Source: Solirubrobacterales bacterium (GTDB lineage Bacteria > Actinomycetota > Thermoleophilia > Solirubrobacterales > Solirubrobacteraceae). From it: 11,102 nucleotides of DNA. Below the pieces are notes generated by a model. It had not been told where the DNA came from, made no database searches, and was given only the letters and a program-made list of their open reading frames with translations. The translations under genes were made by a program, and so were the position numbers. Location of the stretch: assembly GCA_015655225.1 (NCBI GenBank), contig JAATFK010000455.1, positions 1 through 11,102 of the forward strand, read 5' to 3'. Positions 1 through 11,102 of this stretch are shown here, piece by piece; position 1 is the first letter of the stretch; the number at the start of each line of letters is the position of its first letter.

Positions 1-1628
1 ACGTCGTCGGCCATCAGGTCGGGCACCTCGACGAGCGAGAATCTGTCGGAGATCTCGATCGCGCCGATCTGGCGCCCGACGAGGCTCGACTCGCCGGTGA
101 TCGCGCCGACGAGGTCCTGCGGGCGGATCCCGGCGCCGCGCCCGACGCCGACGAACAGCTTCGTCATCGCGTCGCCACTGCTGTTGCCCGGCCGCCCGCC
201 GCCGCTGGAGCCCGGGCGCTTCTGGCCGGCGCCGCCTCTGCTGCCGCCGCTGCGCTCCGCCTTCGAGGGGACGACCGAGGGAATCTCCTCCTCGTCCTCG
301 CCGCCGCCGCTGGAGGTCGCCTCGTGGGCGAGCTTGACGGCCGCGAGCGCGACCATCATCACGTCGAACTCGTCGGTCAGCGTCTCGACCACGACCCGGA
401 AGCGGTCGAGGTCGTCCTCCAACAGGCTCTCGTGCAGCGCCGCCCTCGTCGCCTCCAGCTGACGCGCGTGCAGGTCGGCGACGGTCGGCACCTTCTCGAC
501 CGCGATCCGCTGTCTCGTCGTGCGCTCGATCGCCTTCAGCATGCGGTGCTCGCGCGGCTCCGCGAGCGTGATCGCGACGCCCTCGCGCCCGGCCCGCCCG
601 ACGCGGCCGATGCGGTGGACGTACGACTCCGGCGAGGCCGGCACGTCGTAGTTGATGACGTGGGTCAGCTGGTCGACGTCGAGCCCGCGCGCGGCCACGT
701 CGGTCGCCACCAGCAGCTCCGCCGTCCCCGCGCGCAGCCGTCCCATCACGCGGTCGCGCTGCTCCTGGTTCATGCCGCCGTGCAGCGCCTCGGCGCGGTA
801 GCCGCGGCCGTTGAGCGACTCGGTCAGGCTGTCGACCTCGTCGCGCGTGCGGCAGAAGACGATCGCGGCGGTCGGGCTCTCGACGTCGAGCACGCGGCCG
901 AGCGCCGCCGGCTTGTGCGCCCGCGCGACGACGTACGCGCTCTGGCGCACGAGCGGCGCGTCGCCCGGCGACGCCTCGCGGCCCATCGTGATCCGCACCG
1001 GGGTGCGCAGGTGTCTGCGCGCGATGCGGTCGATCCGCGGCGGCATCGTGGCGGAGAAGAGGACCGTCTGCGCCGCGTCGGGCGTGTCGTGCAGGATCGC
1101 CTCGATGTCCTCCGCGAAGCCCATGTCGAGCATCTCGTCGGCCTCGTCGAGCACGACCAGCTCGAGCGCTCCGAGTCTCAGCGTGCCGCGGCCGATGTGG
1201 TCGAGCGCGCGGCCGGGCGTCGCGACGACGACGTCCACGCCGCGCTCGAGCGCGCGCAGCTGCGAGCGGATCGGCTGGCCGCCGTAGATCGGCAGGACGC
1301 GCGCGCCGAGCCCGCGGCCGTATCTGTGGACCGCCTCGGAGACCTGCACGGCCAGCTCGCGGGTCGGCACCAGCACGAGCGCGAGCGGCGCTCTGCCGCC
1401 GCCGCCGAGCGGCAGCTTCTGCAGGATCGGGAGCGCGAACGCGGCGGTCTTGCCGGTGCCGGTCGCCGCCTGCCCGAGCAGGTCGCCGCCCGCCAGCAGG
1501 GGCGGGATCGCCTCCCGCTGGATCGGGGTCGGCTCCTCGTAGCCGAGGCCGGCGAGCGCGTCGAGCAGCTCGGGCCGCAGCGCAAGGTCGGCGAAGGTGG
1601 TCGTCTCGGCAGCGGGGGTGGTGGGCAT
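1..1628 (-). CDS. deaD: DEAD-box ATP-dependent RNA helicase, DeaD/CsdA type (3' end outside window)
   Basis: This ATP-driven helicase would unwind RNA duplexes during ribosome assembly, mRNA turnover or cold adaptation. The 542 visible residues show the full motif set in order: a Q-motif (PTPIQ, about 33-37), motif I (ATGTGKT, 55-61), Ia (PTRELA, 88-93), Ib (TPGR, 137-140), II (DEAD, 161-164), III (SAT, 192-194), IV (IVFC, 256-259), V (VATDVAARGLD, 307-317) and VI (HRIGRVGRAG, 338-347). Motif VI has Val where most DeaD proteins have Thr. Residues about 437-487 are a Gly/Ser-rich, acidic, low-complexity linker. From about 488 (TKLFVGVGRGAGI) begins a DbpA-type RNA-binding domain cut by the window edge. 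The start is ATG at 1628; a GAGGA (reverse complement of about 1642-1646) lies 13 bases upstream, rather far, and no earlier in-frame start is visible nearby. Family assignment is secure; the exact symbol is by resemblance. Confidence 0.95.
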   Translation of the reverse strand, partial: MPTTPAAETTTFADLALRPELLDALAGLGYEEPTPIQREAIPPLLAGGDLLGQAATGTGKTAAFALPILQKLPLGGGGRAPLALVLVPTRELAVQVSEAVHRYGRGLGARVLPIYGGQPIRSQLRALERGVDVVVATPGRALDHIGRGTLRLGALELVVLDEADEMLDMGFAEDIEAILHDTPDAAQTVLFSATMPPRIDRIARRHLRTPVRITMGREASPGDAPLVRQSAYVVARAHKPAALGRVLDVESPTAAIVFCRTRDEVDSLTESLNGRGYRAEALHGGMNQEQRDRVMGRLRAGTAELLVATDVAARGLDVDQLTHVINYDVPASPESYVHRIGRVGRAGREGVAITLAEPREHRMLKAIERTTRQRIAVEKVPTVADLHARQLEATRAALHESLLEDDLDRFRVVVETLTDEFDVMMVALAAVKLAHEATSSGGGEDEEEIPSVVPSKAERSGGSRGGAGQKRPGSSGGGRPGNSSGDAMTKLFVGVGRGAGIRPQDLVGAITGESSLVGRQIGAIEISDRFSLVEVPDLMADD

Positions 1629-1658
1629 TCGGCGGCTGGATTCCTCGATCTCGATGGC

Positions 1659-1695
1659 GTCGCGCCACGCGGCGCGACACCTCAGGGTGACACCT
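1659..1695 (-). promoter_or_regulatory. Hairpin and repeated heptamer in the helicase 5' leader
   Basis: GTCGCGCC (1659-1666) and GGCGCGAC (1671-1678) form a perfect 8-bp inverted repeat around a 4-base loop, 31 bases upstream of the helicase ATG. Just beyond it, GACACCT occurs twice (1676-1682 and 1689-1695), 13 bases apart; on the helicase strand this reads AGGTGTC. The hairpin could be a leader RNA structure and the repeats could be a protein site. Such structures also arise by chance in DNA this GC-rich. No transcription start is defined, so whether the hairpin is transcribed is unknown. Confidence 0.35.
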
Positions 1696-1723
1696 GCGCG
1701 CCGGCGGCGGCGATCAGGCCGGT

Positions 1724-1755
1724 CACCGGGCGTCCGGACGGGGCCCGGCCCGGTG
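1724..1755 (+). promoter_or_regulatory. Inverted repeat just upstream of the zinc-ribbon gene
   Basis: CACCGGGC (1724-1731) pairs perfectly with GCCCGGTG (1748-1755). The 16 bases between include the 8-bp palindrome GTCCGGAC (1732-1739), and GGGCC-C-GGCCC (1741-1751) overlaps the right arm. If transcribed, the stem would occupy the region where a ribosome-binding site for the gene starting at 1766/1772 would lie. A TANNNT-like TACGGT (1757-1762) follows and would place a transcription start close to the ATG at 1772, in which case the hairpin would be promoter DNA, not leader. The function is unknown. Confidence 0.3.
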
Positions 1756-1771
1756 GTACGGTCGCGTGACG

Positions 1772-2059
1772 ATGGCCGAGTTTCGCGACGCGCGCTGGTA
1801 CGTCATCCGGCGCGCGGGGAGCACGAAGCCGGCGACCTACCGCTGTCCGCTCTGCGGCGGCCGGCTGCCGGCGCTGAGCGAGCACGTGCTGGTGACGCCC
1901 GAGGGCGATTCGTCGCGCCGGCGCCACGCGCACACCGCCTGTGTGCTGCAGGCGCGCAGAGCCGGCCGGCTGCCGCTGCGCGAGGAGGTCGAGCCGCGCC
2001 GGCCGGGGCTGCTCGCGCGGTTGCTCGGCCGCGCGGGGCGCGGCGGCGGGGCCGGCTAG
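1772..2059 (+). CDS. Small zinc-ribbon-like protein, function unknown
   Basis: This is a 95-residue basic protein. Residues 25-28 are a CxxC knuckle (CPLC, followed by GG), and a second cluster HAHTAC at 52-57 supplies His and Cys, so C25, C28, H52 or H54, and C57 could bind one zinc ion. The C-terminal 35 residues are rich in Arg, Gly and Leu and probably disordered or nucleic-acid binding. ATG at 1772 gives MAEFRDARWY; an in-frame GTG at 1766 would add two residues. No good Shine-Dalgarno is seen, so it may be leaderless. The gene is divergent from the helicase and its stop overlaps the DUF302 stop by sharing CTAG at 2056-2059. I recognise no named family. The coding call rests on the Cys/His pattern and on its neat fit between neighbours. 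Confidence 0.72.
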   Translation: MAEFRDARWYVIRRAGSTKPATYRCPLCGGRLPALSEHVLVTPEGDSSRRRHAHTACVLQARRAGRLPLREEVEPRRPGLLARLLGRAGRGGGAG

Positions 2060-2457
2060 TTCGCGGCGGGCGCGGCGAGCGCTCTGCGCGCGGCAGCGAC
2101 GAGCCCGTGCAGCACGGCGTTGAACGTGTCGGCGAGCGCGGCGTGGTGCTCGCCGATCAGCGTGTGCATGTCGCGCAGGACGACGTCCGTGCCGCCGTGG
2201 CCGCCACGGACGACCGCGAGCCGCAGCGGGATGTCGACCGCCGCCGCGAGGTCGCGGCTGAGCAGCTGCGCCCCGGCGGACGGGTTCCCGAACACGAGCG
2301 TCCAGGCCTCGAAGCCGGCGGCGCCGGCGTTCCTCATGTCGTGACCGTGGTCGACGACCGCGTACTCGTAGAGCCCTCTCGCCCGGATCGCCGCGCGCAG
2401 CGCGACGACGACGTCGGGCGGGTGGGCGTCGATCGCGAGGCGCTCGTACGCGGGCAC
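2056..2457 (-). CDS. DUF302 family protein
   Basis: This 133-residue protein contains the DUF302 core: a strand ending VVDHGHD (34-40), AAGFEAWTLVFGNP (about 46-59), a segment AGAQLLSRDLAAAVDIP (61-77) and a final strand LRLAVV (78-83). The FGNP turn followed by the 'aspartate-hydrophobic-Pro-Leu' strand is the hallmark of the family, whose biochemical role is unsettled. There is no signal peptide, so it is probably cytosolic. The start is GTG at 2457; no clear ribosome-binding site precedes it. It lies 16 bases downstream of the small helical-protein gene and is probably co-transcribed with it. Its stop codon overlaps that of the convergent zinc-ribbon gene. Family call is good; function is unknown. 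Confidence 0.85.
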   Translation of the reverse strand: MPAYERLAIDAHPPDVVVALRAAIRARGLYEYAVVDHGHDMRNAGAAGFEAWTLVFGNPSAGAQLLSRDLAAAVDIPLRLAVVRGGHGGTDVVLRDMHTLIGEHHAALADTFNAVLHGLVAAARRALAAPAAN

Positions 2458-2473
2458 CGACGGGCTCGCGGCG

Positions 2474-2770
2474 CTAGGAGCCGGCGCGCGGCGCGGTGAC
2501 GCCGTGTCTGCGCAGGTAGTCGAGGTAGAACGGCCGCAGCAGCTCGGCGACCTGGCCTCTGCCCGACTCGGTCAGGTCGTCCACGTGGGCGACGAGCGTC
2601 TGGATGTCGGCGTTCGCCTCGTCGAGCTCGCCGGCGGCCGCCTCGGCGGCCGGCAGGACCTCCACGAGATCCCAGAAGAAGCGAAGGTCGACGTGGTGCC
2701 GCGCGCGCTTCACGGCGAGGTCGTGGAGCTGCTCGGAGGAGAGCGGATCGAGTCCGTCGTCGGCAGTCAT
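2474..2770 (-). CDS. Small conserved-looking helical protein, function unknown
   Basis: This is a 98-residue acidic protein from ATG at 2770 (MTADDGLDPLSSEQLHDLAV). It looks all-helical: a first helix around SSEQLHDLAVKRARHHVD, a middle LRFFWDLVEVLPAAEAA segment, a stretch DEANADIQTLVAHVDDL, and a C-terminal helix RPFYLDYLRRHGV. There are no Cys residues, no membrane segment and no catalytic motif I recognise. The frame remains open upstream to 2872, but that extension overlaps the divergent SRPBCC gene and is Ser/Thr/Arg-rich, so I prefer 2770. GGCGGC directly upstream is only a weak ribosome-binding site. It sits first in a likely two-gene operon with the DUF302 gene, and its start lies within 26 bases of the divergent SRPBCC start. 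Confidence 0.72.
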   Translation of the reverse strand: MTADDGLDPLSSEQLHDLAVKRARHHVDLRFFWDLVEVLPAAEAAAGELDEANADIQTLVAHVDDLTESGRGQVAELLRPFYLDYLRRHGVTAPRAGS

Positions 2771-2782
2771 GCCGCCGCAGAC

Positions 2783-2788
2783 TATCCT
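2783..2788 (+). promoter_or_regulatory. Possible -10 element for a leaderless SRPBCC gene
   Basis: TATCCT matches 4 of 6 positions of TATAAT and fits the TANNNT pattern. It ends 7 bases before the GTG at 2796, which would put transcription start at or next to the start codon. No convincing -35 is seen. The assignment is tentative. Confidence 0.3.
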
Positions 2789-2795
2789 GCCGAAC

Positions 2796-3233
2796 GTGCT
2801 CCGCGTCGACCGCACCGTCAGCAGCGAAGTCCCAGCCGCGCCCGCGCGCTGCATGGAGCTGCTCGGCGACATCGAGTCCTACCCCGACTGGTCCTCGCTC
2901 GTCGCCGCGATCGACGTGCTCGACCGCGACGCGGACGGCCGGCCCTCACGCGTGAAGATGCGCGCCCAGGTGATGGGCCTCTCGGTCACGATGACCTGCG
3001 CGATCGAGCTGGGCGACGACCATGCCGCGCTGCGACGCATCCCGCACGAGGGCGCGAGCGACGAGGAGCGCTTCGACGCGGCCTGGAGCGTCAGCCCCTC
3101 GGGCGCCGGCAGCTCCGTCACGCTGCGGGTCGACGCCGGGCTCGACGCGCCGGCCGCGATCGGCCCGTTCGGCGGCCGGATCGCGAAGAAGCTCGTCGAC
3201 GACCTGCTCGCCGACTTCGTCCGCGCCGTCTGA
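2796..3233 (+). CDS. SRPBCC (START/polyketide-cyclase-like) family protein
   Basis: This 145-residue protein has the helix-grip pattern of SRPBCC proteins. It opens with a strand LRVDRTVSSEVPAAPARC, then a helix with the typical LLGDIESYPDW motif (about residues 21-31). Strands ending in GRPSRVKMRAQVMGLSVTMTC, ERFDAAWSVSPSG and SSVTLRVDAGL follow, and a long C-terminal helix (IAKKLVDDLLADFVRAV) closes the cavity. Family members bind lipids, polyketides or quinones, or act as cyclases; no specific ligand can be read here. I chose GTG at 2796 because it begins at the first strand; ATG at 2769 would add nine residues and overlap the divergent start. The end lies 13 bases from the convergent XRE-cupin gene. 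The family is confident; the role is unknown. Confidence 0.86.
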   Translation: MLRVDRTVSSEVPAAPARCMELLGDIESYPDWSSLVAAIDVLDRDADGRPSRVKMRAQVMGLSVTMTCAIELGDDHAALRRIPHEGASDEERFDAAWSVSPSGAGSSVTLRVDAGLDAPAAIGPFGGRIAKKLVDDLLADFVRAV

Positions 3234-3246
3234 GGCCCGCCGCCCG

Positions 3247-3876
3247 CTAGTCGGCGGTGCGGTCGTCCTCGCCCTCGGGCGCCACCGAGGCGCGCTCGAC
3301 CGCGGTGCCGGAGGCGAACGCGGGGAAGACCATCAGGAGCAGGGCGGTCGCGCCCGCCTCGGGGGACGCGTAGCGGTGCGGGCGGTCGGCCGCGAAGGAG
3401 ACGAAGTCGCCCGCCTCCAGCTCGGCGATCGCGTCCTCGGGACCGGTCTGCACGTCGCCCTCCAGCACGAACAGCTGCTCCAGCACGCCGGTCGCGTGCG
3501 CCGGCGAGTGCTGCACCGAGCCGGGCTCCAGCTCGACCCGGTACAGCTCCAGGATCGCGCTGCCGACGTGGGTCCGGCGGATCAGCCGCGCCGTCGTCGA
3601 CCAGCCGCGCATCAGCGGCCCCTCGCCCGCGCGCACGACGCTGGGCGCGTCGTCGGGCGGCTCGGAGACGAGGTCGCCGAGCGTCGAGCCGAGCGCGCGG
3701 CTGAGCGTGTGGAGGGTGTCGATCGTCGGGTTCGCGCGGCCCGCCTCGAGCTGGGTCAGCGTCCCCTTCGCGAGGCCCGCGAGCCGGCCCAGCTCGGCGA
3801 GCGACAGCCCACGGGCCCGTCGCAGGCGCCGGACGTTGGCGCCGACTGTCTCGGCCACGAAGCTCACCGCTCCCAC
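3247..3876 (-). CDS. XRE-family transcriptional regulator with C-terminal cupin domain
   Basis: This 209-residue regulator has two domains. Residues about 11-70 are an XRE/Cro helix-turn-helix: VRRLRRARGLSLAELGRLAG, then AKGTLTQLEAGRANPTIDTL, the classic recognition-helix segment. Residues about 105-190 are a cupin barrel, with an H-x4-H stretch (H123, H127) followed by GVLEQLFVLEG, and the second motif GDFVSFAADRPHRY. In this class the cupin senses a small molecule, commonly in amino-acid, polyamine or keto-acid metabolism. It probably controls the divergent oxidase-methyltransferase-transporter genes and its own operon; that is inference from position. The start is GTG at 3876, with further in-frame GTGs at 3867 and 3858 that cannot be excluded. 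The upstream eamA stop is one base away (TAA-C-GTG), so the two are almost certainly co-transcribed and translationally coupled. Confidence 0.92.
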   Translation of the reverse strand: MGAVSFVAETVGANVRRLRRARGLSLAELGRLAGLAKGTLTQLEAGRANPTIDTLHTLSRALGSTLGDLVSEPPDDAPSVVRAGEGPLMRGWSTTARLIRRTHVGSAILELYRVELEPGSVQHSPAHATGVLEQLFVLEGDVQTGPEDAIAELEAGDFVSFAADRPHRYASPEAGATALLLMVFPAFASGTAVERASVAPEGEDDRTAD

Positions 3877-3877
3877 G

Positions 3878-4831
3878 TTACCGGCGCGGCGGCGGGACGG
3901 CCGTGTCGACGGCGGGCCGCGCGGGCACGGCCGCGACCGTCCCGGCCGCCGCGCGCACGCTCCCCCGCGCGCGGCTGCCGAGCGCGACGCCGACGAGGAT
4001 CAGCGCGAGCCCGCCGAGCGCGCGCCCGGTCACGTGCTCGTGCTCCGCGAGCGCGCCGACCAGCAGCGCGACCGCCGGGTTGAGGTAGGTCACGAGCAGG
4101 GCGCGCTGCGGGCCGGCGGTCTGCACCAGCCGCACGAAGAGGACGACCGCGAGCATCACGGCGGCGACGCCGAGCACGACGACGGCGCCGATCGCCCGCG
4201 CGCCCGGGAGCGTCGCGTGCAGCGCGAAGCAGGCCGGCGGAAGCGCGAACGGGACCGCGCCGAGAACCGCCAGCGAGCCGGTCGCGACCGGCGGCGCGTC
4301 GGAGAACCAGCGGCGCACGACGAGCGCACCGCCGGCGTACGCGAGCGCCGCGCCGAGCGCCGCGAGGCCGCCGACCGCGTCGATCCGCAGCCCCCCGGCG
4401 CCGAGCCCGGCGACGAGCGCGACGCCGGCGAGGCCGAGCGCCAGGCCGCAGCCCTGGAGTGGGGTCGGGCGCACGCCGCCGCCGAGCACGCCGAGCGCCG
4501 CCACGAACAGCGGGGTCGCCGCGATCAGGACCGCCGTCTCGCCGGTCGGGACGGTTCTCAGGGCAATCGCGACGAGCACGAGCGGCGCTGCCGTCTGCGC
4601 CAGCCCGAGCGCCAGCACCGCCAGCGGGCGCTCGCGCGCGAGCGCGATCGCGTGCGCCCGCTCGCGTCGCGAGACGGCCAGCAGCGCGAGTGCCGCGAGC
4701 CCCGCGAACAGCACCTGCGCGCCGACCACGCCGAGCGGCGCGAGGTCGTCGAGCGCCCAGCGCGTCGGCAGGTAGGAGCCGCCGCGCAGCAGCGCGACGA
4801 CGACCAGCAGCAGCACCATCCCCCGAGTCAT
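3878..4831 (-). CDS. EamA/DMT-superfamily transporter
   Basis: This 317-residue integral membrane protein has about ten hydrophobic segments in two repeated halves, as in the drug/metabolite transporter superfamily. The start MTRGMVLLLVVVALLRGGSY followed by LPTRWALDDLAP is the usual first helix of EamA proteins. The second half ends with the family-typical VTYLNPAVALLVGALAEHE and a final helix GGLALILVGVALGSR. A polar Ala/Pro/Arg tail of about 25 residues follows. Members typically export amino acids, nucleosides or metabolites; the substrate here cannot be read. I chose ATG at 4831 because a near-consensus -10 sits exactly 7 bases upstream, implying leaderless expression; ATG at 4819 is the alternative. 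It heads an operon with the XRE-cupin regulator and is divergent from the FMN-oxidase operon, suggesting it exports a substrate or product of that pathway. Confidence 0.92.
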   Translation of the reverse strand: MTRGMVLLLVVVALLRGGSYLPTRWALDDLAPLGVVGAQVLFAGLAALALLAVSRRERAHAIALARERPLAVLALGLAQTAAPLVLVAIALRTVPTGETAVLIAATPLFVAALGVLGGGVRPTPLQGCGLALGLAGVALVAGLGAGGLRIDAVGGLAALGAALAYAGGALVVRRWFSDAPPVATGSLAVLGAVPFALPPACFALHATLPGARAIGAVVVLGVAAVMLAVVLFVRLVQTAGPQRALLVTYLNPAVALLVGALAEHEHVTGRALGGLALILVGVALGSRARGSVRAAAGTVAAVPARPAVDTAVPPPRR

Positions 4832-4834
4832 AGG

Positions 4835-4919
4835 GGTCAGTATACAAGTCGCTTTCGGACAGTATGGTGCGCCAGCTGGACGACTGGCTCGCGCGGAACT
4901 CTGGCCATTCGGACAATGA
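4835..4919 (+). repeat. Three GGWCARTRW direct repeats in the divergent promoter region, candidate operators
   Basis: The copies are GGTCAGTAT (4835-4843), GGACAGTAT (4857-4865) and GGACAATGA (4911-4919). The first two are 22 bases apart, about two helical turns. The second and third share a longer exact core TTCGGACA (4854-4861 and 4908-4915). The first overlaps the eamA -10, so a protein bound there would block that promoter. They lie between two divergent operons beside an XRE-cupin gene, so that regulator is the obvious candidate ligand. This region is distinctly less GC-rich than the rest of the window. Binding is inference. Confidence 0.4.
4839..4844 (-). promoter_or_regulatory. -10 element of the eamA promoter (leaderless)
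   Basis: On the minus strand this reads TATACT, matching 5 of 6 positions of TATAAT. Seven bases separate it from the eamA ATG at 4831, so transcription would begin at or beside the A of the start codon. No Shine-Dalgarno occurs between, which agrees with a leaderless transcript. No good -35 is found at 16-18 bases upstream, which might point to activator dependence. Confidence 0.55.
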
Positions 4920-4942
4920 GATGACCGGAAGCGATCAGCACA

Positions 4943-6079
4943 ATGGCCGCTATGACCGAGCCAACCGCACCAGCCATCCCGCTCGCGGCCGCCTCGCTCT
5001 ACGGTGCGGAGGTCGCCTTTGCGACGCTCGGGGAGATCCACGCGGCGGCGCTCGCGGCCCTCGACCCCGACGTCGCCGACTTCCTCGAGAGCGGCGCCGG
5101 CAGCGAGTCGACCCTGCGCGCCAACCGCGCCGCGTTCGAGCGGCGCACGATCGTGCCGCGGCCGATGAGCGGCGTGACCGCACCCGACCTGGCGACGAGC
5201 TTCCTCGGCGTCCCGCTGCGCCTGCCGCTGCTGACCGCGCCGTTCGGCGGCGACGCGCTGTTCGGCGCCGAGGGCCACCGCGCCGTCGCCCGCGCGAACG
5301 CGGCGCGCGGGATCGCCTCGATCGTGCCGGAGGCGGGCTCCTTCTCGCTCGCGCAGGTCGCCGAGGCGGCGCCCGCCGCCGCGCGCTTCGCGCAACTGCA
5401 CCCGCTGGAGCCGGTCGAGCACGTCGAGGCGATGGCGGCGGCCGCCCGCGAGCACGGCTACAGCGGGCTCTGCATCACGGTCGACTGCCCCATCGGCGGC
5501 TGGCGCACGCGCAACCGCGAGAACCGCTTCGACCCCGACCTGCGCTACTTCGCCGGCAACCTCGACGCGACCGGCACGATCGGCGTCGCGGAGCTGTTCG
5601 GGCGACTGCTGACCGGCGCCCAGTCGCGCTGGACCTGGGAACGGCTCGCGGAGGTCGCGGCCGCCGTCGAGCTGCCCTGGATCGCGAAGGGGATCCTCAC
5701 CCCCGAGGCCGCCGAGGCGGCGATCGCGGCCGGCGCGAGCGCGCTCGTGGTCTCCAACCACGGCGGCCGCCAGCTCGACCCCGCGCCCGCCAGCCTCGAC
5801 GCGCTGCCGGCGGTCGCCGCGGCGGTCGGCGGCCGCGTCCCGATCGCCCTCGACAGCGGCGTGCGCAGCGGCACCGACGTCTTCCTCGCGCTCGCGCTCG
5901 GCGCCGACGTGGTCGTGCTCGGGCGGCTCGCCGCCTACGGGCTCGCGGCCGCCGGCGAGGCCGGCGTGCTGCGGACGCTGGAGCTGCTGGAGGAGGAGCT
6001 GCGCACCGCGATGATCCTCGCGGGCGTCGCCTCGGTCGCCGCGTTCGAGCCGGCGTTCGCCGGGGAGCGGCCGCGATGA
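4943..6079 (+). CDS. FMN-dependent alpha-hydroxy-acid oxidase/dehydrogenase family enzyme with altered active site
   Basis: This 378-residue TIM-barrel flavoenzyme belongs to the lactate/glycolate/mandelate oxidase family, which oxidises 2-hydroxy acids to 2-keto acids with FMN. Conserved features include K249 (WIAKG), the catalytic base H273 and R276 in SNHGGRQLD, D181 in TVD, R188 seven residues later, the FMN-phosphate loop DSGVRSGTDV (304-313) and LGR (326-328). By spacing against Aerococcus lactate oxidase, its Tyr40 position is F47 (DFLESGAG) and its Tyr146 position is H153 (QLH). Both pocket tyrosines are therefore lost, and the substrate or chemistry is probably unusual. Family precedent for amine oxidation exists in MftD of mycofactocin biosynthesis. 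The start is ATG at 4943, with GGAAG 11 bases upstream; ATG at 4952 is possible. The stop overlaps the RidA-like start. It is first gene of a six-gene plus-strand run. Confidence 0.9.
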   Translation: MAAMTEPTAPAIPLAAASLYGAEVAFATLGEIHAAALAALDPDVADFLESGAGSESTLRANRAAFERRTIVPRPMSGVTAPDLATSFLGVPLRLPLLTAPFGGDALFGAEGHRAVARANAARGIASIVPEAGSFSLAQVAEAAPAAARFAQLHPLEPVEHVEAMAAAAREHGYSGLCITVDCPIGGWRTRNRENRFDPDLRYFAGNLDATGTIGVAELFGRLLTGAQSRWTWERLAEVAAAVELPWIAKGILTPEAAEAAIAAGASALVVSNHGGRQLDPAPASLDALPAVAAAVGGRVPIALDSGVRSGTDVFLALALGADVVVLGRLAAYGLAAAGEAGVLRTLELLEEELRTAMILAGVASVAAFEPAFAGERPR

Positions 6080-6471
6080 GCGCCGGCGAGGCGGCCGCGC
6101 CGCCCTTCGCGCCGTGGGTCGAGGCCGGCGGGATCGTCGCGACGGCGGGGATCGTGGCCCTCGAGCCGGGCACGCTGCGGCCCGTCTGCGACGACGTCGA
6201 GGGCCAGGCGCGCTGGGTCCTGACGGAGCTCGACGAGCTGCTCGCGGACGCCGAGGCCGAGGGCGCCCCGCTGCGGCTCCTGCGGGTCGAGTGCTTCCTC
6301 TCCGACCGCGCCTGGTTCGCCGCTTGGAACGCCGCCTTCGCCGACCACTTCGGGCCGTCCGCACCGGCCCGCACCACCCTCGTCAGCGAGCTCGTCCTCG
6401 ACGGGCTGCTGATCGAGGTCCAGGCACTGGCCGCCCGCGACGCGGGCGCCCGACCAGCAGCAACCGACTGA
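6076..6471 (+). CDS. RidA/YjgF-family protein, probable imine/enamine deaminase
   Basis: This 131-residue protein of the RidA (YjgF/YER057c/UK114) family would hydrolyse reactive imines or enamines of amino acids to keto acids plus ammonia. It shows the family signature: VATAGIVALEPGT (about 21-33), QARWVLTELDELLADA, the strand LRVECFLSD (69-77), WNAAFADHF, and the C-terminal PARTTL with R99, equivalent to the carboxylate-binding Arg of E. coli RidA. This is followed by LIEVQALA with E114. Both key residues are therefore present and it should be active. Its ATG overlaps the preceding TGA (ATGA, 6076-6079), giving translational coupling to the FMN enzyme and suggesting that enzyme or its neighbour yields an imine. 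The methyltransferase gene follows after 39 bases. The family is confident; the substrate is unknown. Confidence 0.92.
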   Translation: MSAGEAAAPPFAPWVEAGGIVATAGIVALEPGTLRPVCDDVEGQARWVLTELDELLADAEAEGAPLRLLRVECFLSDRAWFAAWNAAFADHFGPSAPARTTLVSELVLDGLLIEVQALAARDAGARPAATD

Positions 6472-6499
6472 CCACGCAGGACCGATCCCATCGCGACCC

Positions 6500-6506
6500 A
6501 GGGGGG
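6500..6506 (+). promoter_or_regulatory. Strong ribosome-binding site of the methyltransferase gene
   Basis: AGGGGGG ends 4 bases before the ATG at 6511. It is the strongest Shine-Dalgarno-like site in the operon and fixes this start. It suggests the methyltransferase is translated independently and not by coupling to the RidA-like gene. Confidence 0.7.
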
Positions 6507-6510
6507 CCAG

Positions 6511-7524
6511 ATGAACTTGCATTCGGTGTTGGAGGGCTATACGGCGGCGCAGATGGTCGTCGCCGCCGACGACTTCGGCTGGTGGACGAAGCTGGAGGGC
6601 GCGAACGGCGCCGGCGTCGTCGTCGCCGAGGACGGGGCGCTGCCGCAGACCGTCGCCCGCGCGCTCGTGCGGGCCGGCTGGCTCGAGCCCGACCCCGACG
6701 AGGTCGCACAAGCGGAGGCCGGGGCCGGCTCCGGGACGGGAGCGCGGTTCCGGCTCTCCGACGAAGGGCGCGAGGTCGCCCACAACCGCGGCTTCGTGCG
6801 CGTCGTCGCACGCGGCTGGATGCCGACGTTCCACGCGCTCGACGAGGCGCCGGTGCACGCGCCGATGCTGCCGGCGCAGACGCAGCCGGAGGACGTCGCG
6901 CGCGGCTGCACCGACATCGCGCGTCGCTGTCCGGAGACGTTCCGCGTGATCGCGGAGCGGCTGCGGGCCGACCCCGGGACGACGATCGACCTCGGCTGCG
7001 ACGACTCCGGGCGGCTGCTGGAGCTGGCGAAGCTGGCCCCGGACGAGCGGCTCGCCGGCGTCGACCTCTCCGCGAGCGTGATCCGCCAGGCCACGCGCCG
7101 CAACGAGAAGCTCGGCCTCGCCCAGCGGGTCCAGCTGTTCCATGGCGACGTGACGCCGCGCATGCCGCCGCCCCAGTGGCTCGGCGCGCGCCTGCGCGAG
7201 CAGGTCACGACCGCGATGTCGTTCTTCCTCCTGCACCAGCTCGCGAGCGACGGCGGCGGCATCGGCGCCGTGCTGGAGGGCTGGAGCGCGTGGTTCCCCA
7301 ACCTCCGCCGGCTCGTGATCGGCGACGGCCTGCTGAGCCCCGGCAGCCGGTGGGACGAGCAGCCCTGGTTCGCGCCCACCTATGAGCTGTACCACGAGCT
7401 GACCGGCGTGCGGCTGTGGGCCGAGGAGGAGTACCGCGAGGCGTTCGCCTCGCTCGGCTGGACGATCGCCGAGCGCTGCGACGTCGACCACCCGATGCTC
7501 GTGATGTACGTGCTCGAACGCTGA
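6511..7524 (+). CDS. Class I SAM methyltransferase, MppJ/SgvM/MrsA-like (putative alpha-keto-acid C-methyltransferase)
   Basis: This is a 337-residue protein. An N-terminal winged-helix dimerisation domain (about 1-110; ARALVRAGWLEP, then RFRLSDEGREV) precedes a Rossmann methyltransferase domain. Motif I is TIDLGCDDSGRLLELA (158-173), followed by the acidic GVDLS (183-187) and GDV (212-214). From memory of phenylpyruvate methyltransferase MppJ, the layout matches closely: FPNLRRLVIGD (262-272) and YELYHELTGV (291-300) resemble its C-terminal half. H242 (FLLHQL) and H295 fall at the places of its two iron-binding histidines. Those enzymes methylate the beta-carbon of 2-keto acids before transamination to beta-methyl amino acids. 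Motif I is odd, with the second and third glycines replaced by Asp and Ser. The general methyltransferase family is solid; the keto-acid subfamily is inference, and a more ordinary O-methyltransferase is the alternative. Confidence 0.82.
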   Translation: MNLHSVLEGYTAAQMVVAADDFGWWTKLEGANGAGVVVAEDGALPQTVARALVRAGWLEPDPDEVAQAEAGAGSGTGARFRLSDEGREVAHNRGFVRVVARGWMPTFHALDEAPVHAPMLPAQTQPEDVARGCTDIARRCPETFRVIAERLRADPGTTIDLGCDDSGRLLELAKLAPDERLAGVDLSASVIRQATRRNEKLGLAQRVQLFHGDVTPRMPPPQWLGARLREQVTTAMSFFLLHQLASDGGGIGAVLEGWSAWFPNLRRLVIGDGLLSPGSRWDEQPWFAPTYELYHELTGVRLWAEEEYREAFASLGWTIAERCDVDHPMLVMYVLER

Positions 7525-7526
7525 GC

Positions 7527-7538
7527 GCGCGGCCGCGC
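7527..7538. repeat. Perfect 12-bp GC palindrome after the methyltransferase stop
   Basis: GCGCGGCCGCGC lies two bases after the TGA at 7522-7524, in the 47-base gap before the lipoprotein gene. It has no T-run behind it. It could pair in RNA only with a tight loop, so it might pause transcription or protect an upstream mRNA end, or mean nothing in such GC-rich DNA. Confidence 0.3.
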
Positions 7539-7571
7539 CACCCGTCGAATCCCCTGAACCGGAGACCATCC

Positions 7572-8621
7572 ATGCACCAGCCCCACCCGAGGCGGTGGCG
7601 CGGCCCGCTGCCCGCCGCCGCCGTCGCCCTCCTCGCCACCGGTGCGCTCGCGCTCGCCGGCTGCGGCTCCACGTCGAGCAGTGACCCGGCCGCGCCGGGC
7701 GCGGCGGCCGCGGGCGGCTCGACCACGAGCGGCGGGAGAGGCGAGCTGAAGGTCGGCGTCCTGCAGATCGCGCAGGCGCAGGTGCTCGACCAGACGGTCA
7801 AGGCGTTCGAGCAGCAGCTGACGAGAGACCTCGCGCCGCGCGCCGTCAGCTTCGACGTCAAGAACGCCCAGGGGGACGACTCGCTGATCCAGAGCATCGG
7901 CCGCAACTTCACCTCCTCCGGCGACGGGATGATCGCGGTGATCGGGACGCCGGCTGTGATCGCGGTCGCGAAGCTGGAGCGCCAGAGACCGGTGATCGCG
8001 CTCGCGATGGGGGATCCGGTCGGCTCGAAGGTCTCCGACTCGCTCACCAGATCGGGGACGAACGTGACCGGCAGCATCGACTTCGTCGACCCGAGACTGA
8101 TCCTCGCGCAGATCCTGCGGGTCTCCCCGAGACCGGCGACGATCGGGACCGTCTACGACCCCGGCAACGAGAACTCGGCGGTCTGGGTCAAGGCGCTGAA
8201 GGCGGCGACGGCGGCCGACGGGCTGAAGCTGAAGGAGGCGACGATCGGCGGCTCGGGGGATCTGCCGGCGGCCTCCCGCGAGGTGGCGGAGGGCTCCGAC
8301 GCGGTGGTGATCGGACCGGACTCGACCGTCGTCGCCGGGATCCCGGCGGTCGCGTCCGCGACGACGGCGCACAAGCTGCCGCTCTACGTCGTCGCCGGCG
8401 ACCCGACGATCCCGGGCGTCTTCGCGACGCTCGGCCCGAGCTACCCGACGCTCGGCGCGAAGACCGGCGCGCTCGCGGCGACGATCGCGAAGGGCACGAG
8501 GCCGCAGGACACGGCGTGGGTGCAGCCCGGCAGCGTCGAGTGGGGGATCAACCCGAGAACGCTCGCGACGCTCCACGTGACGGTGCCCGCCGCGGTGCTG
8601 AAGGAGGCGGGCGTCAGATGA
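7572..8621 (+). CDS. ABC transporter substrate-binding lipoprotein, TrpX-like
   Basis: This 349-residue lipoprotein is the extracytoplasmic binding component of an importer. A basic N-terminus (HPRRWR) and a hydrophobic stretch lead to the lipobox LAGC with C31 as the lipidated residue; a Ser/Ala/Gly linker follows to about 56. The mature part matches the ABC_sub_bind/TrpX family: KVGVLQIAQAQVLDQ (60-74), NAQGDDS (98-104), GTPAV (125-129), GDPVGS (147-152), NVTGSID (164-170), TVYDPGNENS (193-202) and GPDSTVVAG near the ligand hinge. Such proteins bind aromatic amino acids or related small molecules; specificity is not readable. ATG at 7572 has GGAG 7 bases upstream. The permease start overlaps its stop (ATGA). 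Arginine is mostly AGA or AGG here (10 of 17 codons), unlike its operon neighbours. Confidence 0.92.
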   Translation: MHQPHPRRWRGPLPAAAVALLATGALALAGCGSTSSSDPAAPGAAAAGGSTTSGGRGELKVGVLQIAQAQVLDQTVKAFEQQLTRDLAPRAVSFDVKNAQGDDSLIQSIGRNFTSSGDGMIAVIGTPAVIAVAKLERQRPVIALAMGDPVGSKVSDSLTRSGTNVTGSIDFVDPRLILAQILRVSPRPATIGTVYDPGNENSAVWVKALKAATAADGLKLKEATIGGSGDLPAASREVAEGSDAVVIGPDSTVVAGIPAVASATTAHKLPLYVVAGDPTIPGVFATLGPSYPTLGAKTGALAATIAKGTRPQDTAWVQPGSVEWGINPRTLATLHVTVPAAVLKEAGVR

Positions 8622-9568
8622 AGCAGCTGATCCTCGACACGCTCGTCACCGGGATGCCGCTCGTCACCTCGGTGATCGGCATCTGGATGATCTTCCGCCT
8701 GCGGGAGGACTTCGACCTGACGGTCGACGCCTCGTTCGCGACCGGCGGCGCGGTCACGGCCGCGCTCCTGGTGAAGGGCAGCGGCGTCGTCCCGGCGATG
8801 CTGGTCGCGATCGCGGCCTGCGGCGCGATGGGGCTGATGACCGCCGGCCTGCACCTGCTGCTGCGCGTGCCGGTGCTGCTCGCCGGCGTCGCGATGTCGA
8901 TCGGCTTCTACTCGGTCGACCTCGCGATCATGGGGACGCCGTCGGTCAGCCTCGCCGACGGCGGCACGCTCTTCAGCGGCTTCGCGAACCTCTCGCCCGA
9001 CCAGGCCGACCTCGCGACGATCGGTGTGCTGAGCGCGTTCGTCCTCACGGTGCTGGTCGGGCTCGGGCTCTTCCTCCGCACCGAGATCGGCCTCGCGCTG
9101 CGCGCCAGCGGCGTGAACGCGCGGATGGCCCGCAGCCAGGGCGTGAACGTCAGAGTGCTGCTCTGCTTCTCGCTCGTCGTCGCGAACGGGCTCGCGGGCC
9201 TCTCCGGCTGCCTCGTCGTGCAGAGCGACGGCTTCGCCGACGTGAACATGGGCACCGGCACGCTGATCGCGGGGATCGGCGCGGTGCTGCTGGGCGAGCT
9301 GATCCTGCGGCCGACCGGCTCGAAGCTGCTGCGCACGATGCTCGCGCTGCTGGTCGGCGCGCTCGCCTACCGCTTCATCCTCGTCGGCGCGCTGCGGCTC
9401 GGGCTGCCCGCGACCGACCTGCAGGCGGTGACGGCGCTGACGCTCGTGACGGCGATCGCCGCCGAGCGCTACGGCCGCCCGCTGCTGTCGCTGCTGAGAC
9501 GACGGATCACGACGATCGGCCCACCGTCCCGCGCTCCGCGGGCGGCCGCCGGGACGGGAGGACAGTGA
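8618..9568 (+). CDS. ABC transporter permease, TrpY-like (BPD_transp_2 type)
   Basis: This 316-residue polytopic membrane protein is the channel subunit partnering the upstream lipoprotein. Hydrophobic segments are seen at about 8-27, 38-52, 58-82, 86-105, 134-153, 178-202, 213-230, 238-258 and 267-282. The cytoplasmic loop between helices, IGLALRASGVNARMARSQGVNVR (about 157-179), is the ATPase-contact loop of this branch of the livH/rbsC-like permeases. The C-terminal ILRPTGSKLLRTMLALLVGA region followed by LGLPATDLQAVTAL is typical of TrpY-type partners of ABC_sub_bind proteins. The last 25 residues are a Pro/Ala/Arg tail. The start is ATG at 8618, overlapping the upstream stop by 4 bases. 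The ATPase gene begins at its stop codon, so all three genes are coupled. Confidence 0.92.
   Translation: MKQLILDTLVTGMPLVTSVIGIWMIFRLREDFDLTVDASFATGGAVTAALLVKGSGVVPAMLVAIAACGAMGLMTAGLHLLLRVPVLLAGVAMSIGFYSVDLAIMGTPSVSLADGGTLFSGFANLSPDQADLATIGVLSAFVLTVLVGLGLFLRTEIGLALRASGVNARMARSQGVNVRVLLCFSLVVANGLAGLSGCLVVQSDGFADVNMGTGTLIAGIGAVLLGELILRPTGSKLLRTMLALLVGALAYRFILVGALRLGLPATDLQAVTALTLVTAIAAERYGRPLLSLLRRRITTIGPPSRAPRAAAGTGGQ
9556..9562 (+). promoter_or_regulatory. Ribosome-binding site deciding the ATPase start
   Basis: GGGAGGA ends 5 bases before the ATG at 9568 and only 2 bases before the alternative GTG at 9565. The spacing favours ATG, whose A is the last base of the permease stop codon (TGATG). 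Confidence 0.6.
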
Positions 9569-10386
9569 TGCTCACGCTCGACGACGTGCGGCTCACGTAC
9601 AACGGCGGGACGAGCGCCGAGGTGCGCGCCCTGCGCGGGGTGACGCTGACGATCCCGGCGGGCGAGTTCGTCACCGTCGTCGGCTCCAACGGTGCCGGCA
9701 AGAGCTCGCTGATCAAGCTCGTGGCGGGGGAGGAGCGGCCGACCAGCGGCCGCGTCGAGCTGGACGGTCGCGACGTCACGCGGCTGCCGGTCCACCGCCG
9801 CGCCCGTGACGTGGCGCGCGTCTTCGACGACCCCCGCGCCGGCTCGCTGCCGGAACTGTCGATCGAGGACAACCTCGCGCTCGCGCTCTCCCGGGGCCAG
9901 CGCCGCCGGCTGCGCTTCGCGGTCGGCGGCGAGCGCCGCGCGCTGATGCGCGAGCGGCTCGCGGTGCTCGGGCTGGGGCTGGAGCGGCGGCTCGCGGATC
10001 CGGTCGGGCTGCTCTCGGCGGGACAGCGGCAGAGCCTCACGATGGTGATGGCCGGGCTGCGGGACCCGCGCGTGCTGCTGCTCGACGAGCACCTCGCCGC
10101 GCTCGATCCCGGCACGCAGCGGCGCGTGCTCGAGCTGACGACGGCGATGGTGCGCCGGCTCGGCTGCGCGACCGTGATGGTGACCCACAACATGGAGCAC
10201 GCGATCGACGTCGGCGACCGGCTGCTGGTGATGTCGCGCGGCGAGCTGATCGCCGACTTCAGCGGCGAGCGCAAGGCGGCGCTGAGCGTCGAGGCGCTGG
10301 TCGAGACGATCGCGAGCGCCGGCGACGCGGTCTCCGACCGGATGGTGCTGCGCGAGGAGGCGGCGCCGGCGGGGGCCGGGCGCTAG
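9568..10386 (+). CDS. ABC transporter ATP-binding protein, TrpZ-like, with substituted Q-loop
   Basis: This 272-residue nucleotide-binding subunit energises the importer with the two preceding genes. Motifs are Walker A GSNGAGKS (39-46), signature LSAGQRQS (149-156), Walker B VLLLDE (169-174) with catalytic E174, D-loop ALDP (178-181) and H-loop H207 (VTHNM). Two departures stand out. The Q-loop, usually VFQDP in this branch, reads VFDDP with D87, and the signature has Ala for the second Gly (LSAGQ instead of LSGGQ). The Q-loop Gln normally contacts Mg2+ and the permease, so the coupling may be altered; a basic QRRRLRF insert follows at 111-117. The last 30 residues are a variable tail. The start choice is discussed under the ribosome-binding site. 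Its stop overlaps the convergent peptidase stop (shared CTAG, 10383-10386). Confidence 0.92.
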   Translation: MLTLDDVRLTYNGGTSAEVRALRGVTLTIPAGEFVTVVGSNGAGKSSLIKLVAGEERPTSGRVELDGRDVTRLPVHRRARDVARVFDDPRAGSLPELSIEDNLALALSRGQRRRLRFAVGGERRALMRERLAVLGLGLERRLADPVGLLSAGQRQSLTMVMAGLRDPRVLLLDEHLAALDPGTQRRVLELTTAMVRRLGCATVMVTHNMEHAIDVGDRLLVMSRGELIADFSGERKAALSVEALVETIASAGDAVSDRMVLREEAAPAGAGR

Positions 10387-11102
10387 CTCGGCTCGACGCG
10401 CCCGGCGTCGACCGCGGCCTGCTCGGCGGCCGCCAGCTGCTCCTCGACGAGCGCCAGCCCGGCGTCCCAGAAGCCGGGGTCGGCGAGGTCGATCCCGACC
10501 AGCTCGCCGAGCTCCTGCGGCGGCAGCGAGCCGCCGGCCGACAGCAGTCTCAGGTAGGAGGGCACGAACGACGGGCCCTCCTCGGTGTAGCGACGGTAGA
10601 CCGACAGCGCCAGCAGCTGCCCGTAGGCGTACGCGTAGACGTAGCCGGGCGTGTTGATGAAGTGGGGGATGTAGGACCACCACGAGCGGTAGCCGTCGGT
10701 CACCTCGACGGCGTCGCCGAACAGCTCCGTCTGCGTCTCGGCCCAGAGGTCGCCGAAGCGCTCGACGCCCAGCTCGCCCTCCTCGCGGCGCGCCGTGTGG
10801 ACGAGGTCCTCGAAGTGGAACATCGCGGTCTGGCGGAAGACGGTCGCGATCGCGCCCTCGATCGACTCGGCCAGCAGCGAGAGGCGCGAGGCGGGCGTCG
10901 AGGCGGCGTCGAGCAGCCGCCCGAAGACGAGCGTCTCGCCGAACACCGACGCCGTCTCGGCGAGCGTCAGCGGCGTCCCCTGGTGGTAGACGCCCTGCGG
11001 CCGCGCGAGCGCCGCGTGCACGCCGTGGCCGAGCTCGTGCGCGAGCGTCAGCACGTCGCGGCGGCGGGCGGTGTAGTTCAGCATCACGTACGGGTGCTGC
11101 GA
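10383..11102 (-). CDS. pepF: Oligoendopeptidase F-like M3 metallopeptidase (5' end outside window)
   Basis: The 239 visible C-terminal residues, open to the window edge, belong to the M3B oligoendopeptidases, cytosolic zinc enzymes that cleave short peptides. They begin with the typical SQHPYVMLNYTARRRDVLTLA leading into the zinc site HELGHG. A LAETASVFGE segment some 25 residues later supplies the third zinc ligand (Glu). Further on, SYIPHFINTPGYVYAYAYG is the conserved His/Tyr-rich segment that lines the active site in this family. The C-terminus, with LPPQELGELVGIDLADPGFWDAGL and an Ala/Glu-rich helix, is also standard. All catalytic parts visible are intact. The stop overlaps the ABC ATPase stop, tail to tail. 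It is probably a separate housekeeping peptidase, not part of the neighbouring system. The residue count of the missing N-terminal part cannot be given. Confidence 0.94.
   Translation of the reverse strand, partial: SQHPYVMLNYTARRRDVLTLAHELGHGVHAALARPQGVYHQGTPLTLAETASVFGETLVFGRLLDAASTPASRLSLLAESIEGAIATVFRQTAMFHFEDLVHTARREEGELGVERFGDLWAETQTELFGDAVEVTDGYRSWWSYIPHFINTPGYVYAYAYGQLLALSVYRRYTEEGPSFVPSYLRLLSAGGSLPPQELGELVGIDLADPGFWDAGLALVEEQLAAAEQAAVDAGRVEPS

What the first reader, a model, noticed from the sequence alone, without database searches (positions are those of the whole stretch)
3247..10386. Possible stand-alone keto-acid oxidation and C-methylation system with its own importer, exporter and regulator
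Seen: eamA plus an XRE-cupin regulator run leftward, one base apart. Rightward run an FMN hydroxy-acid oxidase-like gene, a RidA-like gene, a methyltransferase and three TrpXYZ-type ABC genes, with gaps of at most 47 bases and several 1-4 base overlaps. Known: MppJ/SgvM/MrsA-type enzymes methylate the beta-carbon of 2-keto acids, RidA hydrolyses imines to keto acids, and lactate-oxidase-family enzymes produce keto acids. Inference: the unit imports an amino or hydroxy acid, makes a keto acid, methylates it and may export a product such as a beta-methyl amino or keto acid, without any NRPS gene in view. I know of no described system with this composition.
Basis: partly seen in the sequence, partly recalled or inferred. 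Interest (0 to 1): 0.75.

Follow-up and report, generated by a model that had tools for sequence, protein, structure and literature searches.

The report
Amino-acid carbon-methylation gene cassette
Three enzyme genes that are kept together in several actinobacterial genera probably turn an imported amino acid into a carbon-methylated keto acid, and in this genome they sit, with their own importer, exporter and regulator, in one eight-gene block that a close relative lacks.

Summary
The core is a three-gene cassette: FMN oxidase, Rid imine deaminase, MppJ-type methyltransferase (MT). In 25 named MT loci (five other genera) the three are adjacent in this order in 23; in Patulibacter RidA and MT are fused. 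In 118 Nocardia genomes the full-length MT and the close FMN gene occur in the same 17. The MT keeps both metal-binding histidines of 2-keto-acid beta-C-methyltransferases in all aligned sequences, and its model fits MppJ, MrsA and SgvM better than O-methyltransferases. Elsewhere the usual partner is an APC amino-acid permease (23 of 25 loci); here it is a TrpXYZ-type importer with specificity residues of the phenylalanine-binding type. Congener G001 lacks window 3243-10355, its flanks being adjacent, so the eight genes came or went as one block. Best reading: uptake of a large neutral, perhaps aromatic, amino acid; flavin oxidation to the imine; Rid hydrolysis to the 2-keto acid; beta-C-methylation; export by EamA. 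The chemistry is inferred. Seven literature searches listed no such system.

The parts
3247..3876 (-). XRE-family regulator with C-terminal Cupin_2 domain (209 aa); probable ligand-sensing regulator of the block
   Evidence: Pfam HTH_3 1.9e-12, Cupin_2 5.1e-08; best match in the six congeners 38% identical
3878..4831 (-). EamA/DMT permease (317 aa), candidate exporter of the product
   Evidence: Pfam EamA 7e-30; relatives on contigs of the same length as MT or TrpX relatives; a piece 72% identical to residues 16-105 lies divergent from the Patulibacter cassette
4832..4942 (.). Divergent spacer between EamA and the oxidase operon; TTCGGACA occurs twice (4854, 4908), possible operator (untested)
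4943..6079 (+). FMN-dependent 2-hydroxy-acid-oxidase-family enzyme (378 aa), proposed amino-acid oxidase; keeps D181, R188, K249, H273, R276; F47 and H153 stand where lactate oxidase has Tyr40 and Tyr146; D104 and E130 invariant in the cassette clade
6076..6471 (+). Rid-family imine deaminase (131 aa), Arg99 and Glu114 at the places of RidA Arg105/Glu120
   Evidence: Pfam Ribonuc_L-PSP 4.9e-14; alignment to PDB Rid proteins; R99 and E114 in 25 of 25 sequences
6511..7524 (+). MppJ-type SAM-dependent C-methyltransferase (337 aa), metal ligands His242 and His295
7572..8621 (+). Substrate-binding lipoprotein of a TrpXYZ-type importer (349 aa); A275 and Y291 at the two specificity positions
   Evidence: PF04392 6.7e-44, NCBIfam TrpX 156.3 bits, below its cut-off of 390; alignment to 3lkv/3lft/6hni
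8618..9568 (+). Permease of the importer (BPD_transp_2)
   Evidence: Pfam 1.1e-19
9568..10386 (+). ATPase of the importer (ABC_tran)
   Evidence: Pfam 1.1e-25
3243..10355 (.). Segment absent from the congener G001, where the two flanks are adjacent (empty site); the right match runs about 30 bases into the end of the ATPase gene
   Evidence: blastn of the window against L087: 1-1695, 2063-2774 and 2795-3242 match 4585-8171; 10356-11102 matches 8168-8922; no match between

Best explanation
This is a self-contained cassette for carbon-methylating an amino acid by way of its 2-keto acid, gained or lost as one block. Steps: (1) the TrpXYZ-type ABC importer takes up a large neutral amino acid, most likely aromatic and without a hydroxyl, such as phenylalanine; (2) the FMN enzyme, a divergent member of the 2-hydroxy-acid oxidase family, oxidises its alpha-amino carbon to the imine, the flavin being reoxidised probably by oxygen; (3) the Rid protein hydrolyses the imine to the 2-keto acid and ammonia; (4) the MppJ-type methyltransferase binds the keto acid on a metal held by His242 and His295, and SAM methylates the beta-carbon; (5) EamA exports the beta-methyl keto acid, or the beta-methyl amino acid made from it by a housekeeping aminotransferase; (6) the XRE-cupin protein senses a ligand and controls the two divergent units. 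Shown here: gene content, conservation of the genes for steps 2-4 as a unit, active-site and metal-ligand conservation, fold, the empty site. Inferred: substrate, reactions and their order, export, regulation.
For: Core kept together: FMN-RidA-MT adjacent in that order in 23 of 25 named loci; one FMN orthologue, at the cassette locus, in 17 of 18 whole genomes that have the MT; the same 17 of 118 Nocardia genomes for full-length MT and strong FMN; RidA-MT fusion in Patulibacter; identity matrices of the three proteins correlate (Spearman 0.94, 0.88, 0.85; 25 loci with the window). MT of the 2-keto-acid C-MT type; SgvM ligands H244/H296 from PMC10502145 (passages). Rid catalytic residues kept; Rid proteins hydrolyse imines made by flavin amino-acid oxidases (PMC5619798, passages). 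Amino-acid importers of two unrelated kinds: APC permease in 23 of 25 loci, 4-base overlap with FMN in 17 of the 22 where both lie on one strand, TrpXYZ here. TrpX A275/Y291 as in phenylalanine-binding VC_1101 (PMC6816091). Two pocket tyrosines of the hydroxy-acid oxidases replaced. One block.
Against: No activity has been measured. The nearest solved relatives of the FMN protein are named as hydroxy-acid oxidases or dehydrogenases. Pocket widening is weak evidence: Gly102 is shared with 5 of 6 and Ala131 with 3 of 6 FMN_dh comparators outside the cassette. The two APC permeases scanned score best with a branched-chain amino-acid transporter (BcaP, 520 and 544 bits, cut-off 690), which does not point to phenylalanine. 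RidA itself had no significant activity on the imine of L-Phe (PMC5619798, passages). The MT has Gln243 where wild-type MppJ has Asp. No aminotransferase is in the block, so the end product may be a keto acid. TrpXYZ and XRE were not found beside the cassette in the other genera. Two of the 25 loci depart from the order: L053 (oxidase and RidA apart from the MT) and L052 (no FMN or RidA). Two Nocardia genomes and G308 have an FMN relative without MT.
Confidence: 0.55

Rival explanations
1. The FMN enzyme is a true 2-hydroxy-acid oxidase: the block imports or makes a hydroxy acid, oxidises it to the 2-keto acid, and the MT methylates that. The Rid protein only guards against imines from the same pool.
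For: The near relatives in the PDB are hydroxy-acid oxidases or dehydrogenases; catalytic His, Arg, Asp, Lys are kept; a GlcD-like FAD oxidase gene follows the MT in 8 of 25 loci (one of them scanned).
Against: Amino-acid transporters of two unrelated kinds stand with the oxidase; Rid is found in as many of the 25 loci as the oxidase (24) and is fused to the MT in one genome; the Tyr40 and Tyr146 positions of lactate oxidase are changed in this clade.
Confidence: 0.22
2. The FMN enzyme acts as a monooxygenase or oxidative decarboxylase, or acts after the MT on a methylated compound, so the order of steps differs from the one proposed.
For: His153 stands at the place of the tyrosine that was changed in mandelate oxidase Y128F (correspondence recalled), a mutant solved with many ligands and FMN adducts (entry titles); the enzyme's stretch 182-212 is mostly poorly modelled.
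Against: Gene order, coupling and the Rid partner fit a keto-acid-producing step before the MT; the MT is by family a 2-keto-acid enzyme.
Confidence: 0.12
3. The cassette is catabolic: it deaminates an amino acid for nitrogen or carbon, and the MT marks or detoxifies a keto acid that would otherwise build up.
For: Oxidase plus Rid plus importer resembles amino-acid use; TetR/MFS partners in 19 and 20 of 25 loci resemble detoxification units.
Against: Spending SAM on a keto acid is not a usual degradative step (established knowledge); in 25 loci no further gene cluster besides APC, MFS and TetR reached 15 loci except antisense ORFs, though neighbours shared among Nocardia loci were not all identified; distribution is sparse.
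Confidence: 0.09
4. The eight genes are unrelated neighbours.
For: TrpXYZ, EamA and XRE were not found beside the cassette in Nocardia, Williamsia, Mycolicibacterium or Actinomadura apart from weak ATPase or EamA matches farther off.
Against: The empty site in G001 shows all eight in one inserted or deleted segment; relatives of MT, TrpX and EamA recur on contigs of identical length; the three enzymes co-occur.
Confidence: 0.02

Closest known systems
MppJ / SgvM / MrsA / MarI / GlmT 2-keto-acid beta-C-methyltransferases (PMC10502145, passages; PMC11496134, passages)
   Same: Same methyltransferase type, two metal-binding histidines, same fold; nearest structure is MppJ, which methylates phenylpyruvate (PMC11117315, passage)
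   Different: In the MppJ route the product is turned into the amino acid by an aminotransferase such as TyrB (PMC11496134; the other pathways' transaminases and NRPS context are recalled); here a dedicated FMN oxidase and Rid protein stand before the MT, no aminotransferase or NRPS gene is in the block, and it has its own importer and exporter
L-amino-acid oxidase - cytochrome c - RidA operon of Gluconacetobacter diazotrophicus (PMC5053998, abstract and passages)
   Same: A flavin oxidase and a RidA protein in one operon, linked to turning tryptophan into indolepyruvate
   Different: That oxidase is an amine oxidase (pfam01593) with an export signal, not of the FMN_dh family; no methyltransferase in the operon
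FMN-dependent 2-hydroxy-acid oxidases (HAO1/glycolate oxidase, lactate oxidase, mandelate oxidase)
   Same: Same family and fold; same catalytic His, Arg, Asp, Lys
   Different: 28-37% identical in the structural alignments listed; two pocket tyrosines replaced; Glu130 invariant in the cassette clade and in none of six comparators
ApyS of the apy RiPP cluster (PMC11117315, abstract and passages)
   Same: MppJ-like methyltransferase that methylates the beta-carbon of an alpha-keto acid made by a dedicated oxidative enzyme of the same cluster
   Different: Acts on a peptide C-terminus; the oxidative enzyme is an MNIO; no Rid protein named in the passages
TrpXYZ / CD0873 / VC_1101 aromatic amino-acid ABC importers (PMC6816091, passages and section 8; PMC9382623, passages)
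   Same: Same gene kinds and binding-protein family
   Different: Well below the TrpX equivalog cut-off (156.3 of 390 bits); specificity residues of the phenylalanine type

Membership tests
2-keto-acid beta-C-methyltransferase (MppJ/SgvM/MrsA type) | Two histidine metal ligands (SgvM H244, H296; PMC10502145) | tested here: met
   H242 and H295 align with MppJ histidines in the profile alignment to wild-type MppJ; of the two single-sequence alignments shown one was off by one at H242; invariant in 31 of 31 and 26 of 26
2-keto-acid beta-C-methyltransferase (MppJ/SgvM/MrsA type) | Fold nearer to this group than to O-methyltransferases | tested here: met
2-keto-acid beta-C-methyltransferase (MppJ/SgvM/MrsA type) | Curated equivalog ketoArg_3Met (MrsA) or ApyS | tested here: not met
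   40.2 of 425 bits and 40.4 of 400 bits: not an orthologue of either
2-keto-acid beta-C-methyltransferase (MppJ/SgvM/MrsA type) | Methylates the beta-carbon of a 2-keto acid | not testable with these tools
   needs an assay
FMN-dependent 2-hydroxy-acid oxidase family (PF01070) | Family profile and catalytic His, Arg, Asp, Lys | tested here: met
   E 2.4e-97; H273, R276, D181, R188, K249 in 26 of 26 rows, the Patulibacter locus being in twice
FMN-dependent 2-hydroxy-acid oxidase family (PF01070) | Pocket tyrosines (lactate oxidase Tyr40, Tyr146; roles recalled) | tested here: not met
   position 47 is Phe in 25 of 26 rows (Tyr in L053), position 153 is His in 26 of 26; five of six comparators have Tyr at both
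L-lactate oxidase / pre-mycofactocin synthase MftD equivalogs | Curated score cut-off | tested here: not met
   184.7 of 645.5 and 167.6 of 470.85 bits
Rid family with imine deaminase activity | Arginine at the RidA Arg105 place (PMC5619798, passage) and glutamate at Glu120 (recalled) | tested here: met
   R99 and E114 in 25 of 25 sequences
Rid family with imine deaminase activity | Curated subfamily TIGR00004 | tested here: not met
   45.8 of 106.25 bits; Rid subfamily not determined
Rid family with imine deaminase activity | Imine hydrolysis | not testable with these tools
   needs an assay
TrpXYZ tryptophan importer | TrpX equivalog score and Gln at the SP1069 Gln284 position | tested here: not met
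   156.3 of 390 bits; Tyr291 at that position, as in VC_1101 and CD0873; positions matched by alignment and the 16-residue spacing
Aromatic amino-acid binding proteins 3lkv/3lft/6hni (PF04392) | Sequence relationship over most of the mature protein | tested here: met
   E 1.1e-31, 2.7e-31, 3.9e-31; other ligand contacts were not compared

The most novel reading that the evidence does not exclude
A new kind of stand-alone biosynthetic cassette: flavin-driven oxidative deamination by an FMN 2-hydroxy-acid-oxidase-family enzyme that has become an L-amino-acid oxidase, coupled through a dedicated (once even fused) Rid imine deaminase to a metal-dependent beta-C-methyltransferase, moved between actinobacteria as a block and fitted with interchangeable amino-acid importers and exporters, to make and secrete a free beta-methyl keto or amino acid as a signal or antimetabolite without any NRPS.
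Probability: 0.38. Interest if true: 0.8.

Novelty: new variant of a known kind. Interest (0 to 1): 0.66.

Why it matters
Beta-methyl amino acids are sought-after building blocks, and the routes I know of are tied to peptide antibiotic clusters and use aminotransferases (partly recalled; PMC11496134 for MppJ plus TyrB). A three-gene route from amino acid to beta-methyl keto acid that works outside such clusters would be new enzymology (an amino-acid oxidase in the FMN hydroxy-acid-oxidase family), would give a compact tool for biocatalysis, and would point to an unknown class of small secreted actinobacterial metabolites. It is directly testable with three purified proteins.

Tried and rejected
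Second RidA-MT fusion: one search suggested one in Nocardia jiangxiensis (L045); one search shows a stop codon between the genes, so it was an artefact of my ORF extension and is rejected. Only the Patulibacter fusion stands.

Double counting: L002 (G078:C56, 18,005 bases) and L032 (NZ_AGUD01000298.1, 18,005 bases) are the same locus. L002 was left out of the counts; the 26 rows hold both.

Pocket widening in the oxidase: first taken as a cassette feature; one search shows Gly102 in 5 of 6 and Ala131 in 3 of 6 comparators, so only Phe47, Asp104, His153 (shared with the sister in G308) and Glu130 (not shared) set the clade apart.

Weak FMN hits dropped from the Nocardia count: G737 and G817 (about 340 bits, no MT) against 410 bits (G811, a partial match) to 682 bits for the 17. 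MT-only genomes: G724 and G798, both partial matches.

GlcD-like gene: nine loci hold it; in L046 it lies 6.9 kb from the MT, so eight are adjacent.

Substrate from the APC permease: branched-chain amino acids by nearest model, while TrpX points to phenylalanine; I could not reconcile the two beyond 'large neutral amino acid'.

Plasmids: 11 Streptomyces records with matches of 24-29% identity only. No tRNA in the window and no mobility gene recognised among the ORFs; the means of transfer is unknown. GC content of the block (75.0%) is close to the flanks (74.6% and 72.9%).

RidA and EamA were not searched in the congeners on their own.

Literature: seven searches aimed at this combination or its parts listed no paper on it; one search was for the importer. 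Some lists were cut (12 of 26, 12 of 16, 12 of 13 shown), most listed papers were seen as listing only, and subscription papers are mostly not held.
Full report
Observation. The eight genes lie at the stated places and are as tightly packed as described. Each has a family match; for the MT the Pfam matches are just below cut-off and its assignment rests. Long antisense ORFs are what a 75% GC sequence gives.

The core is a conserved three-gene unit. An alignment of 31 sequences (the window and 30 of the other 49 proteins; A1) was used to scan the collection of 84,980 species genomes; 25 distinct loci were found (pattern-based, so a lower bound): 19 Nocardia, 3 Williamsia, and one each of Mycolicibacterium, Actinomadura and Patulibacter. 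In 23 of the 25 the FMN gene, RidA and MT lie next to each other in this order. The exceptions are L053 (N. miyunensis: oxidase and RidA with the APC permease on the other strand, 5-7 kb away) and L052 (N. seriolae: MT only, its match starting at residue 35). In Patulibacter RidA and MT are one 466-residue protein (P0006). Pairwise identity matrices of the three proteins over 25 loci (window and 24 named) correlate with Spearman 0.94 (FMN-MT), 0.88 (FMN-RidA) and 0.85 (RidA-MT); none of 999 permutations reached these values. Shared species history contributes to this.

Whole-genome tests. Of 18 genomes that carry the MT (18 of the 25 loci were given), 17 have one FMN match at E<=1e-70, and its place is that of the cassette locus (in L053 about 5 kb from the MT); N. 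seriolae has none. In an even draw of 118 Nocardia genomes, 19 have an MT match (17 full length, 2 partial) and 17 a strong FMN match (16 full length, G811 partial); the 17 and the 17 are the same genomes. Two further genomes have a weaker FMN match (about 340 bits) and no MT. In an even draw of 396 genomes of the phylum only the window's own genome has the MT at E<=1e-30, and only it and G308 have an FMN match at E<=1e-90. In 299 genomes of the class two have the MT: the window's and G078, which is the Patulibacter locus. Among 151 relatives the same two have a full-length close match; the other listed matches are short or at most 30% identical over longer stretches. The cassette is thus rare and patchy.

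Empty site. The window is a whole 11,102-base contig of a 77% complete, 3.4% contaminated genome, but its origin is secure: the pepF flank is 95% identical in protein to congener G001. Blastn of the window against G001's region (L087) gives window 1-1695 (88%), 2063-2774 (80%) and 2795-3242 (83%) along L087 4585-8171, and window 10356-11102 (92%) at L087 8168-8922, with no match between. In G001 the two flanking genes are about 50 bases apart. The segment present here and absent there thus coincides, within about 30 bases, with the eight-gene block. In the other five congeners, of which I fetched 13-14 kb around pepF, only the pepF side matched. None of the six congeners has a close MT, FMN or TrpX match, and the best XRE match is 38%. 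A gain in the window's lineage is the simpler reading; loss in the others is not excluded.

The window's transporter version recurs. In the protein searches, relatives of MT, TrpX and EamA share contig lengths: 12,229 bases (P0003 MT 71%, P0054 TrpX 62%, P0176 EamA 64%), 4,951 bases (P0002 MT 71%, P0052 TrpX 63%), and 99,397 bases (P0157 TrpX, which departs from the family in its C-terminal part, and P0173 EamA 70%; no MT of that contig is among the 50). That equal lengths mean one contig is inference; as a check, P0006's 18,005 bases equal the Patulibacter record. In Patulibacter a piece 72% identical to EamA residues 16-105 lies at the contig end, divergent from the cassette.

In the other genera the partners are analogous, not homologous. 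By clustering of my own ORF calls an APC amino-acid permease is present in 23 of 25 loci, MFS in 20, TetR in 19, and a GlcD-like FAD oxidase is adjacent in 8. Profile scans were made on a few representatives: two APC proteins, two MFS by Pfam (one just under the cut-off), one TetR, one GlcD-like. The APC stop overlaps the FMN start by four bases in 17 of the 22 loci where both lie on one strand. An importer for amino acids thus stands beside the oxidase in 23 of 25 loci and, of another kind, in the window; this is the main reason to prefer an amino acid over a hydroxy acid as substrate.

Rid protein. Arg99 and Glu114 are kept in 25 of 25. Rid proteins turn imines released by flavin amino-acid oxidases into keto acids; a passage names the residue analogous to Arg-105 as the determinant of activity (PMC5619798). 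RidA itself had no significant activity on the imine of L-Phe there and ACIAD3089 was like it, while Pseudomonas proteins such as PA0814 were similar or higher.

Importer. TrpX is related to 3lkv, 3lft and 6hni at 1e-31 to 4e-31. PMC6816091 (passages and section 8) ascribes the choice of Phe, Tyr or Trp to two positions: Ala/Tyr in Phe-binding VC_1101, Glu/Tyr in Tyr-binding CD0873, Ala/Gln in Trp-binding SP1069. I placed these by the alignment and their 16-residue spacing: the window has Ala275 and Tyr291. Its relatives mostly have Gly at the first and Tyr at the second. This is the best hint at phenylalanine, and MppJ's substrate is phenylpyruvate (PMC11117315, passage). The APC permeases of the other genera point rather to branched-chain amino acids.

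Mechanism and alternatives are given in the fields above. Known beta-methylphenylalanine synthesis uses MppJ on phenylpyruvate and then the aminotransferase TyrB (PMC11496134, passages); an oxidase-cytochrome-RidA operon linked to indolepyruvate is known (PMC5053998, abstract and passages). The lists showed no paper combining an FMN oxidase, a Rid protein and a keto-acid C-methyltransferase.

Noticed in passing
L070 (G308:C12), 1492-3494: Sister FMN oxidase (45.5% identical, FGAD and QLHP motifs; no MT in that genome at E<=1e-30) lies directly beside an ORF that looks by eye like an EamA-type permease on the same strand, near an MmgE/PrpD-like ORF (by eye): perhaps an oxidase-exporter pair without methylation.
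   Followed up: partly
G000:C712:1180-1686 (L031) and L004-L008: The window's genome (30% identical) and five of six congeners (25-28%) carry a distant relative of the MT; surroundings and function were not examined.
   Followed up: no
L054, 5837-7057: In Actinomadura rayongensis an O-methyltransferase-type gene (Methyltransf_2 plus Dimerisation) lies between the MFS/TetR genes and the cassette; no APC permease was found in that locus.
   Followed up: no
L038 10991-13941 and L040 11224-14234: Downstream of the cassette in two Nocardia loci lie three clustered ORFs; in L040 they match PIG-L, an esterase and, weakly, an activator-dependent glycosyltransferase: possible tailoring genes.
   Followed up: no
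L052: N. seriolae retains only an MT match lacking its N-terminal part, with no FMN match in the whole genome: the cassette looks decayed there.
   Followed up: partly
window 4854 and 4908: TTCGGACA occurs twice in the divergent spacer, a possible operator of the XRE-cupin regulator.
   Followed up: no
L066 (G035:C1): A TrpXYZ-type importer (38%, 58% and 63% identical; ATPase cut by the locus end) occurs in a member of the same family; no FMN, RidA or MT relative was found in that 3.9 kb.
   Followed up: partly
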